NCBI GenBank assembly: GCA_003554345.1
Contig: PWGE01000241.1
Span: forward strand, 1 to 5,159
Direction: 5' to 3'
Length of the DNA stretch: 5,159 nt
DNA from: T1SED10-198M sp003554345 [NCBI: Candidatus Sumerlaeota bacterium]
GTDB lineage: Bacteria > Sumerlaeota > T1SED10-198M
Translations under genes and position numbers: made by a program
Notes under the pieces: generated by a model
The model's database searches: none
Seen by the model: the letters and a program-made list of their open reading frames with translations, nothing else
Told to the model about the DNA's origin: nothing
Shown here: one piece after another, positions 1,473 through 4,822 of the stretch
How the letters are laid out: the number at the start of each line of letters is the position of its first letter
Position numbering within the stretch: the first letter of the stretch is position 1

Positions 1473-2108
1473 ATGGCGTTTATTCGTTATCCCCGGTGGT
1501 TGGAAGTCAGCGGTCTACCTCAATTGTTAAACGAAGAAGCCCCCCCACACGGGTATTTTATCTTTAAAAAACTGGTAGAAATGGATCTTTACCAGAATGT
1601 TTCGCCGGATATAATAGAAACCTCCCTTCATCAGCTGAGCAAATTTCTGGGACTCTCTATGAACAATATTGAGCAAATGCTGAAAACACTGGAATCATCA
1701 GAGTATATAAAAATATTCTGGGGAAATATTCCCGAAGAAGAACTCTTCTTACGAATCATAATTCCTGTCAAAACCCCGCAATCACCCTTTGAAATACCTG
1801 AAACAGAAGGAGGATACAAGGAACGTCCTGAAGAGCAGGTTCCTTATTATCATGTCCCTGATTTTGATCCTGACAGCAGCGATTTAGACCGTGATGATTA
1901 CTTTCAGACAAAGCTGGAACATGTCACCAATTGGTATGTTCAAATTATCAAACCAGATCTCAATCCTATTGTATTGCAAAAAATTCACTATCTCTGTCAG
2001 AGCTTTTCCTATCAGGATTTACGACAGGCTTTTTTAAATGCAAGAAAAAATAAAGTGAGGTCACTCGAATGCTTGATGAGAGAATTATACAGTTACAAAA
2101 AGCGGTAG
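1473..2108 (+). CDS. DnaD-like replication initiation protein (putative)
   Basis: A 211-residue soluble protein with no signal peptide or membrane segment. Residues about 26-98 look like a winged helix-turn-helix: several predicted helices (FKKLVEMDLY; IIETSLHQLSKFLGLS; IEQMLKTLESSEYI) lead into a beta-rich stretch, FLRIIIPV. Residues about 99-143 form a proline-rich and acidic linker. Residues about 144-207 resemble the DnaD/DnaB_2 C-terminal helical domain, with a WYVQII helix, a QDLRQAFLNARKN helix and an ending like the family's 'SLxYLxxxL' helix. DnaD-type proteins help open the origin and recruit the helicase loader. That role fits the next gene, a DnaC/DnaI-type ATPase, which begins inside this one with a 40 bp overlap. 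The start at 1473 is 4 bp after cysS. A GGAG at 1458-1461 is 11 nt upstream, and AAAGGA abuts the ATG too closely to be ideal. The family call rests on pattern recognition and context and could be wrong; a phage-type replication protein is the main alternative. Confidence 0.68.
   Translation: MAFIRYPRWLEVSGLPQLLNEEAPPHGYFIFKKLVEMDLYQNVSPDIIETSLHQLSKFLGLSMNNIEQMLKTLESSEYIKIFWGNIPEEELFLRIIIPVKTPQSPFEIPETEGGYKERPEEQVPYYHVPDFDPDSSDLDRDDYFQTKLEHVTNWYVQIIKPDLNPIVLQKIHYLCQSFSYQDLRQAFLNARKNKVRSLECLMRELYSYKKR
2057..2060 (+). promoter_or_regulatory. Ribosome binding site of the DnaC-like gene, inside the DnaD-like gene
   Basis: GAGG sits 8 nt before the ATG at 2069, within the coding sequence of the upstream DnaD-like gene. 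It supports 2069 as the true start and so a real 40 bp overlap between the two genes. This arrangement favours co-translation of the pair. Confidence 0.6.
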
Positions 2109-2782
2109 AACAACCCTGTCCTGAATGTAACGGAGAAGAATATATTATCAAGGATAACCGGGCCATTCCCTGTGAATGCCGCCACCAAAAAAAGCTTTTG
2201 AAATCCTTTAAATCTGCTGAAATTCCCCCTAAGTATGAACATGTGACAATAGAAAATTTCAAAGAAATCAACAGTACCTGTGCAAAACTTAAAACCATGG
2301 CAAAAAGATATGCCGAGAACTTTACACCTGGTTGCACAGGTTTTCTATTTAAGGGTAAAACCGGTTCGGGAAAAACACATCTGGCTGTTTCCATTCTAAA
2401 AGAGCTCATTTTTAAAGGATACAGCGGCCTGTACACAAACACCGTGGACTTATTACAATTCATTCGTTCTGTTCAGTTCAATGCCTGGAAATATGATGAA
2501 CTTACAGAAATGATGGACCATATTCTCCAGCAGGATTTACTGGTACTTGACGACTTAGGGGCGGAAAAAGTTACCGACTGGACCAGGGAGCGTTTATATT
2601 CCCTGATCAACAAATTATATGAAAATAACAAAACCATTATTGTAACCAGCAACATTGACTTGCACGAACTTTCCCTGCGATTGGGAGACCACACAGTGTC
2701 CCGGTTATGTGAAATGTGCATGCACGATACAAAATTTCCGGACAAGGATTATCGGCGGGTATTCTTAAGACATTTTCTGTAA
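2069..2782 (+). CDS. DnaC/DnaI-type helicase-loader AAA+ ATPase with N-terminal zinc motif
   Basis: A 237-residue AAA+ ATPase of the DnaC/DnaI/IstB group, whose members load replicative helicase or assist transposases. The N-terminus carries a CxxC-CxC pattern (C17, C20, C35, C37) likely to bind zinc. Walker A is GKTGSGKT at residues 96-103. Walker B is LLVLDDLGAE, with D161 and D162. The sensor-1 region is IIVTSN, ending at N195. A late SRL element with R212 matches the arginine-finger position of this family (RxxSRL in DnaC/DnaI). The length fits DnaC-like proteins (about 240-250 residues). An IstB transposase helper is unlikely because no IS21 transposase or inverted repeats are seen nearby, and because the upstream partner looks like DnaD. 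It probably acts in the cytoplasm at forks or origins, delivering the helicase with the upstream protein. It ends in TAA, and the spacer after it separates this block from the kinase gene. Confidence 0.9.
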   Translation: MLDERIIQLQKAVEQPCPECNGEEYIIKDNRAIPCECRHQKKLLKSFKSAEIPPKYEHVTIENFKEINSTCAKLKTMAKRYAENFTPGCTGFLFKGKTGSGKTHLAVSILKELIFKGYSGLYTNTVDLLQFIRSVQFNAWKYDELTEMMDHILQQDLLVLDDLGAEKVTDWTRERLYSLINKLYENNKTIIVTSNIDLHELSLRLGDHTVSRLCEMCMHDTKFPDKDYRRVFLRHFL

Positions 2783-2819
2783 AACAGACAAATATCCAAA
2801 AGGTAAGGTCCTTTATCAT

Positions 2820-2835
2820 CAGCTTATTCAAGCTG
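2820..2835. other. Small hairpin in the spacer after the DnaC-like gene
   Basis: CAGCTT at 2820-2825 and AAGCTG at 2830-2835 form a perfect 6 bp inverted repeat around the loop ATTC. No T-run follows, so it is not a standard intrinsic terminator. It could be a weak RNA processing or attenuation element, a protein-binding palindrome, or chance. Confidence 0.35.
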
Positions 2836-2840
2836 GCAAG

Positions 2841-2869
2841 TACCCTGAAAGAAAACGCTTTACCCTGAA
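2841..2869. repeat. 9 bp direct repeat TACCCTGAA, two copies spaced 20 bp
   Basis: TACCCTGAA occurs at 2841-2849 and again at 2861-2869, start to start 20 bp. This is close to two helical turns, so both copies face the same side of the DNA. They lie in the spacer about 60-90 bp before the start of the kinase gene. Two copies could bind a regulator dimer, but with only two copies chance is possible. Confidence 0.3.
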
Positions 2870-2920
2870 CAAGAAAAGAAGGTTAAAAAAATTCAGTACA
2901 AAGAAAGATTATACAGAAAG

Positions 2921-2925
2921 AGGAG
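2921..2925 (+). promoter_or_regulatory. Strong ribosome binding site for the interrupted sugar kinase
   Basis: AGGAG lies 6 nt before the ATG at 2932, the best Shine-Dalgarno match in the window. It fixes 2932 as the original start of the kinase gene, rather than the ATG at 3061 that follows the internal stop. Confidence 0.75.
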
Positions 2926-2931
2926 AGACCT

Positions 2932-3882
2932 ATGAAATTCAAGTATGCTATTGGAATCGACGGCGGAGCCACTAAAACGAGGGCAGCTCTGGTAAACAGC
3001 GAATAACAGATTGTAAAAGAGCTCACCCGTCGTGAATCAGCCAATTATCATGCTAAAGGAATGCCTGCTATCGCCAGGATGATTAACAGCCTTATTGATG
3101 AATTATTGAAAGAAAGTCCTTCCATTGATCCAGAAGATATTTCTTTTGCATGCCTCGGAGCTACCGGCCTATCCACCGAAGAAGAATATCGCCGGATGTC
3201 TTCTGAATTGAACAGTTTCTCTCATCCCTTTCCCTTTGTTGCCACGAATGATGCTATTACCGCTTTACTCGGGGGGACGGAGCAAAATTATGGAGTACTG
3301 GTTATTGCAGGTACCGGTTCCATTATGATGGGCATTAACACAGAAGGCACCATCGCCCGCGTTGGTGGCTGGGGAGCCCTGCTGGGCGACGAAGGCAGTG
3401 GGTATTATATTGCTGTCGAAGCTTTACGGCTTGTTTGTAAACAGGCAGACGGACGTCTGCAACTTACTCCCCTTCGGGAAGAGATATATAAATTACTGGG
3501 GGTTGAAGATATCTATGGTTTGAGATCATGGGCTATCCAGGTGGGATTTGAAAAAGATAAGATAGCAGCAGTAGCCCCTGCGGTTTTTCAGGCATACCGT
3601 AGAAATGACCGCTATGCAGAAAACATCCTGTTGACACAGGCAAAAGAACTGGGTATAGGAGTTTATACCATCATGAAACATCTCGCCTTTGAAAACAGTC
3701 CGGTAGAAGTTGTAGCCGCCGGGGGAAATCTTATACATAATAAGGACTACTATTCAATGGTAGAAAACGAAATACAGAACCTTAACCAGCAGGCAAACCT
3801 GATCGAACCCCGACAATGTTCATGCACAGGTGCTGTTAAATTTGGTCAACATTACAGTCCTCCTGAAACAGAGCAGGCTTAA
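2932..3882 (+). pseudogene. BadF/BadG-family sugar kinase (N-acetylglucosamine-kinase-like), interrupted by an in-frame TAA
   Basis: The reading frame runs from the ATG at 2932 to the TAA at 3880-3882 (317 codons with the final stop), a normal length for this family, broken only by TAA at codon 25. Counting through the stop, the phosphate-binding motif GIDGGATKT is at residues 8-16, just before the stop. After it come an NDA element with D107, the likely catalytic aspartate by comparison with N-acetylglucosamine kinases, then IAGTGS (GTGS 127-130) and GGWGALLGDEGSG (145-157). A VVAAGGN element lies near the C-terminus. Such enzymes usually phosphorylate N-acetylglucosamine or related sugars with ATP in the cytoplasm, often in cell-wall or chitin-sugar salvage. 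The open part after the stop has its first ATG at 3061 (273 residues). That ATG has no well-spaced ribosome binding site, and its product would lack the ATP phosphate motif. The gene is therefore probably non-functional unless the stop is a sequence error or is read through. Family assignment is firm; the exact sugar is inferred. Confidence 0.85.
3004..3006 (+). other. Premature in-frame TAA (codon 25) in the kinase gene
   Basis: The codons around it read GAA TAA CAG ATT. The frame is the same before and after, and protein similarity continues directly (LVNSE, stop, QIVKELTRRESANYH), so this is one nonsense codon and not a frameshift. One substitution from CAA, GAA or AAA would produce it. 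TAA also ends cysS, the DnaC-like gene and the glycosyltransferase gene, so it is a genuine stop codon here. Confidence 0.9.
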
Positions 3883-3920: not shown

Positions 3921-3962
3921 ATGAACGACAATCTCTGTTCGTATAAACATAAAAAAATATGA
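3921..3962 (+). CDS. Possible 13-codon leader ORF coupled to the glycosyltransferase
   Basis: The frame ATG...TGA encodes MNDNLCSYKHKKI. It is preceded by AAGG at 3909-3912, 8 nt before its ATG. Its TGA (3960-3962) overlaps the ATG of the glycosyltransferase (3959-3961) in an ATGA junction, a classic layout for translational coupling. The glycosyltransferase start has only A/T-rich sequence before it and no Shine-Dalgarno match of its own. The peptide has no recognisable motif and no run of one amino acid typical of attenuation leaders. An ORF this short can arise by chance, so this is a suggestion only. Confidence 0.3.
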   Translation: MNDNLCSYKHKKI

Positions 3963-4822
3963 GATGGTCTGAACCCTGTATTTCTGTTATCATTCCCACG
4001 TTCAATCGTGCCCCTGTTTTAGAAAGGGCAATACAATCGGTCCTCAAGCAGGAGTACCGTCATTTCGAACTTATAGTAGTAGACGACTGCTCTCAGGATA
4101 ACACCGGCTGCATATTAAAAGAGTACCAGAATTCACTCCAGGCTGTCAGGCACCCCTTTCATTGTGGTGTCAGTGCCGCCCGCAACACCGGAATTCTCAG
4201 AGCAAAAGGCTCTTATATCGCCTTTCTTGATTCTGATGATGAATGGCTTCCCTCCAAACTTTCCCGCCAGGTACGGTATCTTCAGTTACATCCTCACTTC
4301 AAGGTTCTTCAAACGGAAGAAATCTGGATTCGAAATGGGAGGCGGGTCAATCCCGGGAAAAAACATGCCAAACCTGAAGGGTATATCTATCTAAAAAGTC
4401 TCCCACTTTGTAAAATAACCCCCTCTTCTGTACTCATTCATTATTCTGTACTGCAAGAGACAGGTCTTTTCGACGTAACTTTTCCAGCGTGTGAAGACTA
4501 CGAACTATGGCTGCGCATTACTTCACGATATCCGGTGGGTCTTGTCAAAACCAAAGAACTCATTAAATATGGGGGACACAATGATCAACTATCCCGCACC
4601 ACTCCCTGCCTTGACCGATGGCGTATCCTGGCACTATTACGAGCTATAGCTGATGGAAACCTGAATAACCGGGAAACATACCGGACCTGGAAAGAAATTT
4701 GCAGCAAGACTCAAATTTATGTACAGGGATGCCGAAAACACGGCAATATTCAGGACTGGCATTTTTTTGAAGGAATTCTTCAGCTGGCACAGGAGAAGCT
4801 TGCCACCTTTAACATATTGTAA
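3959..4822 (+). CDS. Glycosyltransferase family 2 (GT-A fold)
   Basis: A 287-residue protein that should transfer a sugar from a nucleotide-sugar donor to a glycan or lipid acceptor. The GT-A domain occupies roughly residues 7-190. It shows SVIIPTFNR at 9-17, the nucleotide-binding VDDCSQDNTG at 41-50, VSAARNTGI at 71-79, the metal-binding DSD at 91-93 (followed by DEW), and an ED pair at E179-D180 (CEDYELW), the likely catalytic base region. The remaining C-terminal part (YGGHNDQLSRT, then a helical region) is soluble, with no membrane segments, so the enzyme is probably cytoplasmic or loosely attached to the inner membrane face. Donor and acceptor cannot be told from sequence; a role in lipopolysaccharide, capsule or another surface glycan is inferred from the family. 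The ATG at 3959 is the only good start before the conserved SVIIPTFNR. It lacks a Shine-Dalgarno sequence and overlaps a possible leader ORF. The gene lies 76 bp after the kinase gene. Confidence 0.92.
   Translation: MRWSEPCISVIIPTFNRAPVLERAIQSVLKQEYRHFELIVVDDCSQDNTGCILKEYQNSLQAVRHPFHCGVSAARNTGILRAKGSYIAFLDSDDEWLPSKLSRQVRYLQLHPHFKVLQTEEIWIRNGRRVNPGKKHAKPEGYIYLKSLPLCKITPSSVLIHYSVLQETGLFDVTFPACEDYELWLRITSRYPVGLVKTKELIKYGGHNDQLSRTTPCLDRWRILALLRAIADGNLNNRETYRTWKEICSKTQIYVQGCRKHGNIQDWHFFEGILQLAQEKLATFNIL

What the first reader, a model, noticed from the sequence alone, without database searches (positions are those of the whole stretch)
2932..3882. Sugar kinase with a single in-frame TAA just after its ATP phosphate-binding motif
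The gene has a strong ribosome binding site (AGGAG, 6 nt spacing), a correct start and all family motifs. TAA at codon 25 separates GIDGGATKT from the rest. No frameshift and no other damage are visible across about 290 downstream codons, so the lesion is very recent, an assembly or read error, or a recoded stop. A downstream restart at 3061 would give a protein lacking the phosphate motif, so restart alone is unlikely to rescue activity.
Basis: partly seen in the sequence, partly recalled or inferred. Interest (0 to 1): 0.6.

Follow-up and report, generated by a model that had tools for sequence, protein, structure and literature searches.

The report
Sugar kinase gene with stray stop
A bacterial sugar-kinase gene in a fragmentary environmental genome carries one stray stop codon; a few other genes in the same assembly carry similar isolated stops, so this looks like a fresh mutation or a sequence error and not a new way of reading stop codons.

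Summary
A BadF/BadG-type sugar kinase (best solved match: a MurNAc/GlcNAc kinase) starts at 2932 behind a good ribosome-binding site. It has TAA at 3004-3006 (codon 25), then 291 open codons. All 13 columns invariant in 30 relatives are kept. The window is one whole contig of a fragmentary assembly (454 contigs, 88% complete), inferred to be an isolated branch of Candidatus Sumerlaeota.

Recoding is disfavoured. TAA ends 286 of 590 strong frames in the part read. None of the 32 anticodons read, of 34 tRNAs found, reads UAA. None of 109 distant homologues has a stop at this site, a variable turn position.

In the 35% of the genome read, two more genes carry one isolated stop: the only class IV aminotransferase found (ilvE-like; TAA) and an unnamed conserved gene (TGA). 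A GxxExxY nuclease with TAA looks decayed. The stop type is not special.

Best reading: an unprogrammed nonsense lesion in the recorded sequence, either a consensus error or a very recent mutation. Without reads or a sister strain I cannot separate these. A restart at 3061 would lose the phosphate motif. Ordinary; low interest.

The parts
2921..2925 (+). Ribosome-binding site AGGAG, 6-nt spacer before the kinase ATG
   Evidence: Read directly; region pairs with anti-SD at -9.1 kcal/mol
2932..3003 (+). First 24 codons of the kinase, with the phosphate-binding motif GIDGGATKT
   Evidence: Translation; alignment to 30 relatives; D-G-G in 30 of 30 and the T in 26 of 30 relatives
3004..3006 (+). 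In-frame TAA at codon 25, at a turn position that is usually Gly but variable
   Evidence: column in 109 homologues: Gly 77, other residues 30, gap 2, stop 0
3007..3882 (+). Rest of the kinase (291 codons plus terminal TAA), PF01869 BadF/BadG/BcrA/BcrD ATPase family
   Evidence: E 4.3e-30; best solved relative 8zo3, MurNAc/GlcNAc kinase, E 6.4e-36
3061..3063 (+). First in-frame ATG after the stop (possible restart; the product would lack the phosphate motif)
   Evidence: AAAGGA abuts the ATG, weaker pairing (-4.7)

Best explanation
This is an ordinary MurK/NAGK-like sugar-kinase gene in which one codon at a tolerant turn position reads as TAA in the assembled sequence. It is an unprogrammed point lesion: either an error or minority allele captured in the consensus of a fragmentary assembly (I lean slightly this way, about 0.5), or a genuine, very recent nonsense mutation in the sampled strain (about 0.41). 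If the stop is real, ribosomes release a 24-residue peptide, and no other kinase of this kind was found in the held assembly. Shown: the stop, the intact remainder, the single match in the held assembly, and other isolated stops in the same assembly. Inferred: that the lesion is recent or artefactual, and that it abolishes the kinase if real.
For: One stop only, then 291 open codons. All 13 columns invariant in 30 relatives are kept; of columns at least 80% conserved, 50 of 61 match, within the relatives' own range of 66 to 100%, with 5 of 30 lower (the figures with four relatives dropped are 23 of 23 and 56 of 71). Coding signal is unbroken across the stop. Other isolated stops: the only PF01063 match of the held genome has '1 TAA' inside, at a column that is Glu in 8 of 9 and Gln in 1 of 9 relatives; an unnamed gene on C37 has TGA, and 6 of 6 similar sequences examined align on past it. 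A GxxExxY nuclease that looks decayed shows that gene loss also occurs. TAA ends 286 of 590 strong frames. 454 contigs, 87.66% complete, 4.32% contaminated. No UAA-reading anticodon among 32 read of 34 tRNAs found.
Against: No reads and no close relative were available (nearest matches 25 to 38% identical), so neither 'recent' nor 'error' is proven. Gly is the commonest residue in the column (77 of 109) and a Gly codon needs at least two changes to become TAA, which weakens a one-step origin; residues with one-step codons do occur there. The kinase and the ilvE-like gene are both the only match of their kind in the held assembly, which would be odd for tolerated knock-outs and leaves room for some rescue. 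The base after this TAA is C, the rarest after ordinary TAA stops here (27 of 286), a context recalled as leaky. The frame after ordinary TAA stops looks coding-like slightly more often than after TGA: 22 of 286 against 9 of 220 (TAG 7 of 84).
Confidence: 0.91

Rival explanations
1. Consensus error or minority allele in the assembly: most living cells carry a sense codon at 3004-3006 and make a normal kinase.
For: Fragmentary assembly. Single stops of two types in three genes that otherwise read on (kinase; ilvE-like gene, whose two halves together cover nearly the whole profile; unnamed gene), two of them the only match of their kind. The strict scan found 3 interrupted genes (one of them decayed) at a simulated sensitivity of 1091 of 3165, so roughly 9 in the 888 kb read; a modest substitution error rate could give that.
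Against: No read data; the error rate is inferred, not measured. The sensitivity was simulated only in genes with strong coding signal. A scan for frameshifts was too unspecific to help.
Confidence: 0.5
2. Genuine, very recent nonsense mutation: the strain has just lost this kinase.
For: Otherwise intact gene. At least one gene in the genome looks decayed: the GxxExxY nuclease with an in-frame stop and an upstream part broken by further stops.
Against: The ilvE-like gene is also interrupted and no second PF01063 protein was found, so real loss there would imply dependence on outside branched-chain amino acids or a substitute enzyme. No second lesion means it must be very young.
Confidence: 0.41
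3. Functional readthrough of UAA (recoding or low-level suppression) yields full-length kinase.
For: TAA is followed by C (TAA CAG), recalled as a leaky context and uncommon after ordinary TAA stops here (27 of 286). A second single-match gene with an in-frame TAA (ilvE-like) reads on intact. Low-level protein from pseudogenes is reported in bacteria (Feng et al. 2022, seen only as a reference entry in PMC11078800).
Against: TAA is the commonest terminator. No tta anticodon in 32 read of 34 tRNAs found. None of 34 ABC and 35 radical-SAM matches has an inner stop, though so few domains exclude only frequent recoding. No stop at this column in 109 homologues, all distant. The ilvE-like stop is followed by AGA and a third gene has TGA. 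An RF1-like factor is present. The abstract of PMC6764699 calls TGA the leakiest primary stop and TAA non-leaky.
Confidence: 0.05
4. Restart at ATG 3061 makes a shorter but useful protein, or two peptides complement each other.
For: An ATG at codon 44 is preceded by AAAGGA.
Against: AAAGGA abuts the ATG (zero spacing) and pairs more weakly (-4.7 against -9.1). The product lacks the phosphate loop, whose D-G-G is kept in 30 of 30 relatives and whose T in 26 of 30.
Confidence: 0.03

Closest known systems
N-acetylmuramic acid/N-acetylglucosamine kinase of PDB 8zo3 (MurK-type)
   Same: Best of 5 solved matches to the part after the stop, E 6.4e-36 over query residues 13-278
   Different: Distant by sequence; substrate untested; the window gene has a stop at codon 25
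Bacterial pseudogenes with a premature stop, including translated 'pseudo-pseudogenes' (Feng et al. 2022, reference entry only; endosymbiont study PMC13345370, abstract only)
   Same: An otherwise intact gene with one inactivating stop
   Different: No transcript or protein data here; the stop may be a sequence error
Stop codon reassignment in bacteria (stop-to-tryptophan UGA; PMC13092985, start of abstract in the search listing only)
   Same: In-frame stops inside conserved genes
   Different: Here the stops found inside genes are few, of more than one type, and TAA still ends many genes

Membership tests
BadF/BadG/BcrA/BcrD ATPase family (PF01869) | Profile score over the curated cut-off | tested here: met
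   105.6 bits against 31.5 for the part after the stop alone
BadF/BadG/BcrA/BcrD ATPase family (PF01869) | Conserved residues of the relatives, phosphate loop included | tested here: met
   13 of 13 columns invariant in 30 relatives are kept; the loop itself lies before the stop
NagK equivalog (NF046058) | Score over the equivalog cut-off | tested here: not met
   67.8 bits against 370 for the part after the stop; not filed as this NagK
MurK (MurNAc/GlcNAc kinase) | Phosphorylates MurNAc and GlcNAc | not testable with these tools
   Only sequence similarity to 8zo3
UAA reassigned to a sense codon | TAA no longer used as the general terminator | tested here: not met
   TAA ends 286 of 590 strong frames in the 35% of the genome read
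UAA reassigned to a sense codon | tRNA that reads UAA (anticodon tta) | tested here: not met
   None among 32 anticodons read of 34 tRNAs found; those on C91 and C331 were not read and the assembly is 88% complete
Programmed stop-codon readthrough | Stop conserved at the same site in relatives | tested here: not met
   0 of 109 homologues; all distant, so a recent local arrangement is not excluded
Recent pseudogene by nonsense mutation | Stop present in the real DNA | not testable with these tools
   No reads or sister strain available

The most novel reading that the evidence does not exclude
The organism tolerates isolated UAA (and UGA) codons in a few single-copy genes through low-level readthrough, so that the kinase and the ilvE-like aminotransferase are still made in small amounts although the stop codons keep their normal meaning elsewhere.
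Probability: 0.04. Interest if true: 0.6.

Novelty: already known. Interest (0 to 1): 0.12.

Why it matters
It matters mainly as a caution: in a deep-branching genome known from one fragmentary assembly, a single in-frame stop in a conserved gene can look like recoding. Scanning part of the same assembly shows other such stops, of more than one type, which points to lesions or errors. If readthrough were real, it would bear on how bacteria keep enzymes from genes that look broken.

Tried and rejected
Closer relatives for a dN/dS or sister-strain test: none found. The phylum search covered 40 genomes, and all 39 others are labelled only 'same phylum'. A protein scan of genome contigs found no relative; the alignment scan gave its best 80 loci (of 550 related stretches), 25 to 38% identical. 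Plasmids: no match to the window by megablast; with the protein, 137 records, each under 60% identity. A viral-contig scan with the cysS protein found no relative.

Recoding of TAA: disfavoured by stop usage, tRNAs, release factor and 69 domain matches without inner stops, of which 64 are over the family cut-off. Few domains were tested, so rare inner stops would be missed. My first impression that inner stops were all TAA was corrected by a gene with TGA. The expected share of TAA among one-step stops is 37 to 61% by mutation model, so two or three TAA cases mean little.

A shared leaky context: kinase and GxxExxY gene have TAA CAG, the ilvE-like gene has TAA AGA; rejected as a common signal.

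Tandem back-up stops within five codons: 56 of 286 after TAA, 55 of 220 after TGA, 15 of 84 after TAG; no sign of extra protection after TAA.

Frameshift scan to separate error from decay: 99 hits at 81 of 300 simulated sensitivity, many noise by eye; not used. A Markov-model stop scan was strict and returned the kinase alone. A GC-rich candidate on another contig (L126) gave no Pfam family and no plasmid match; not pursued.

In one search I had dropped four (L023, L049, L051, L052); in all four the loop T is another residue, which made the loop look more constant than it is. The gene on C37 is now called unnamed, because no call names it.

Full report
What is there. The window is a complete contig (C114, 5,159 bases) of an assembly of 2,554,880 bases in 454 contigs, 87.66% complete and 4.32% contaminated. 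Its genes on the + strand are cysS (2-1468), a weak DnaD-like gene (1473-2108; E 0.00083, under its cut-off), a DnaC/IstB-type ATPase (2069-2782), the kinase (2932-3882) and a family 2 glycosyltransferase (3959-4822). The kinase locus of one same-phylum genome, G033, is identical over 3,804 bases to a named record, Candidatus Sumerlaeaceae isolate SKW119; from that name I infer Candidatus Sumerlaeota. No genome in the searches is nearer than 'same phylum'.

The kinase has one in-frame stop, TAA at 3004-3006, after MKFKYAIGIDGGATKTRAALVNSE; 291 codons follow. The part after the stop alone scores 105.6 bits against PF01869 (cut-off 31.5), and its best solved match is the MurNAc/GlcNAc kinase 8zo3, E 6.4e-36. 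The 24 codons before the stop align to the N-termini of the relatives. The coding signal is positive before the stop, in the 18 codons between the stop and the next ATG, and after it, and negative in the other two frames of those 18 codons.

The gene is otherwise undamaged as far as distant relatives can tell. In the alignment of 30 relatives the window keeps 13 of 13 invariant columns and 50 of 61 that are at least 80% conserved; the relatives themselves score 66 to 100% by leave-one-out and 5 of 30 score below the window. An earlier count left out four relatives (L023, L049, L051, L052) whose phosphate loop departs from the usual pattern; it gave 23 of 23 and 56 of 71, with 4 of 26 lower. 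The stop falls on a turn that is Gly in 77 of 109 homologues, another residue in 30, a gap in 2 and a stop in none (L184 and L008 hold the same sequence). The window gene also has about one residue more than most relatives shortly after the stop, which ordinary length variation can explain. It is the only match of its kind in the held genome. Of 110 loci compared, a cysS gene lies directly beside the kinase in one relative (L011, 49% identity) and the end of one in another (L014); most phylum loci hold too little flank to judge.

Is the stop special in this genome? I read 887,674 bases (35%) of the assembly. A codon-usage scan of 5,570 same-frame stop junctions left 30 candidates (TAA 20, TGA 8, TAG 2). 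Seven of the 30 were tested by profile search; the rest I judged by eye only. Three are interrupted genes: the window kinase; an ilvE-like aminotransferase on C96 with TAA; and a GxxExxY nuclease on C8 with TAA, whose upstream part is broken by further stops. The aminotransferase is the only PF01063 match of the held genome and was independently reported with '1 TAA' inside; the column is Glu in 8 of 9 and Gln in 1 of 9 relatives. A relaxed scan (61 candidates: TAA 34, TGA 18, TAG 9) added a gene on C37 with TGA. It has no Pfam family but relatives across the phylum (32 of 40 genomes at E 0.001, own genome counted, mostly weak). Of 6 similar sequences examined, one of them from the own genome, 6 align on past the stop, and 4 share a YD-x-TNG stretch with it. 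Simulated stops were recovered by the strict scan in 1091 of 3165 trials, in genes with strong coding signal, so roughly nine such stops may lie in the part read.

Against recoding. TAA ends 286, TGA 220 and TAG 84 of 590 strong frames. Of 34 tRNAs found, 32 anticodons were read and none reads UAA. One release factor was found; a PxT-type motif (recalled) marks it as RF1, which reads UAA. None of 34 ABC and 35 radical-SAM matches in the assembly has an inner stop; at the density estimated above hardly any would be expected, so this excludes only frequent recoding. The bases after the inner stops are not all alike. On the other side, C follows only 27 of 286 ordinary TAA stops, and the frame after ordinary stops looks coding-like in 22 of 286 (TAA), 9 of 220 (TGA) and 7 of 84 (TAG) cases; I give these little weight.

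Mechanism. The best reading is an unprogrammed point lesion in the recorded sequence. A consensus error or minority allele fits isolated stops in genes that are single matches here, in a fragmentary assembly; a very recent nonsense mutation fits the kinase itself equally well. If the stop is real, only a 24-residue peptide is made. The next ATG (3061) is preceded by AAAGGA with no spacer, pairs more weakly (-4.7 against -9.1 kcal/mol) and would give a protein without the phosphate loop.

Literature. Searches on stop-codon readthrough in bacteria, MurK, Sumerlaeota and translated pseudogenes were seen as listings; the abstracts of PMC13345370 and PMC6764699 and two reference passages of PMC11078800 were seen. 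I claim nothing about absence from print beyond saying that no listed title concerns this gene.

Noticed in passing
L132 (contig C96), stop at 4664-4666 on the - strand: The only class IV aminotransferase match of the held genome (ilvE-like) has a single in-frame TAA at a column that is Glu (8 of 9) or Gln (1 of 9) in relatives.
   Followed up: yes
L069 (contig C37), 3301-3303 +: An unnamed conserved gene has an in-frame TGA; 6 of 6 similar sequences examined align past it.
   Followed up: yes
L034 (contig C8), 2602-2604 +: GxxExxY (PDDEXK_3) nuclease with an in-frame TAA and an upstream part broken by further stops: looks decayed.
   Followed up: partly
whole assembly G000: Only one release factor match (RF1-like, contig C5) was found although TGA ends 220 of 590 strong frames; RF2 is probably on a missing piece.
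   Followed up: partly
window 2781-2960 +: Open, Lys/Arg-rich frame without a listed start between dnaC and the kinase; no Pfam family for 2781-2936 (best E 0.095).
   Followed up: partly
window 3959 +: The glycosyltransferase has no visible ribosome-binding site before its ATG (+0.5 kcal/mol).
   Followed up: no
window 1473-2782 +: A weak DnaD-like gene overlapping a DnaC/IstB-like ATPase sits between cysS and the kinase; in relative L011 cysS and the kinase are directly adjacent.
   Followed up: no
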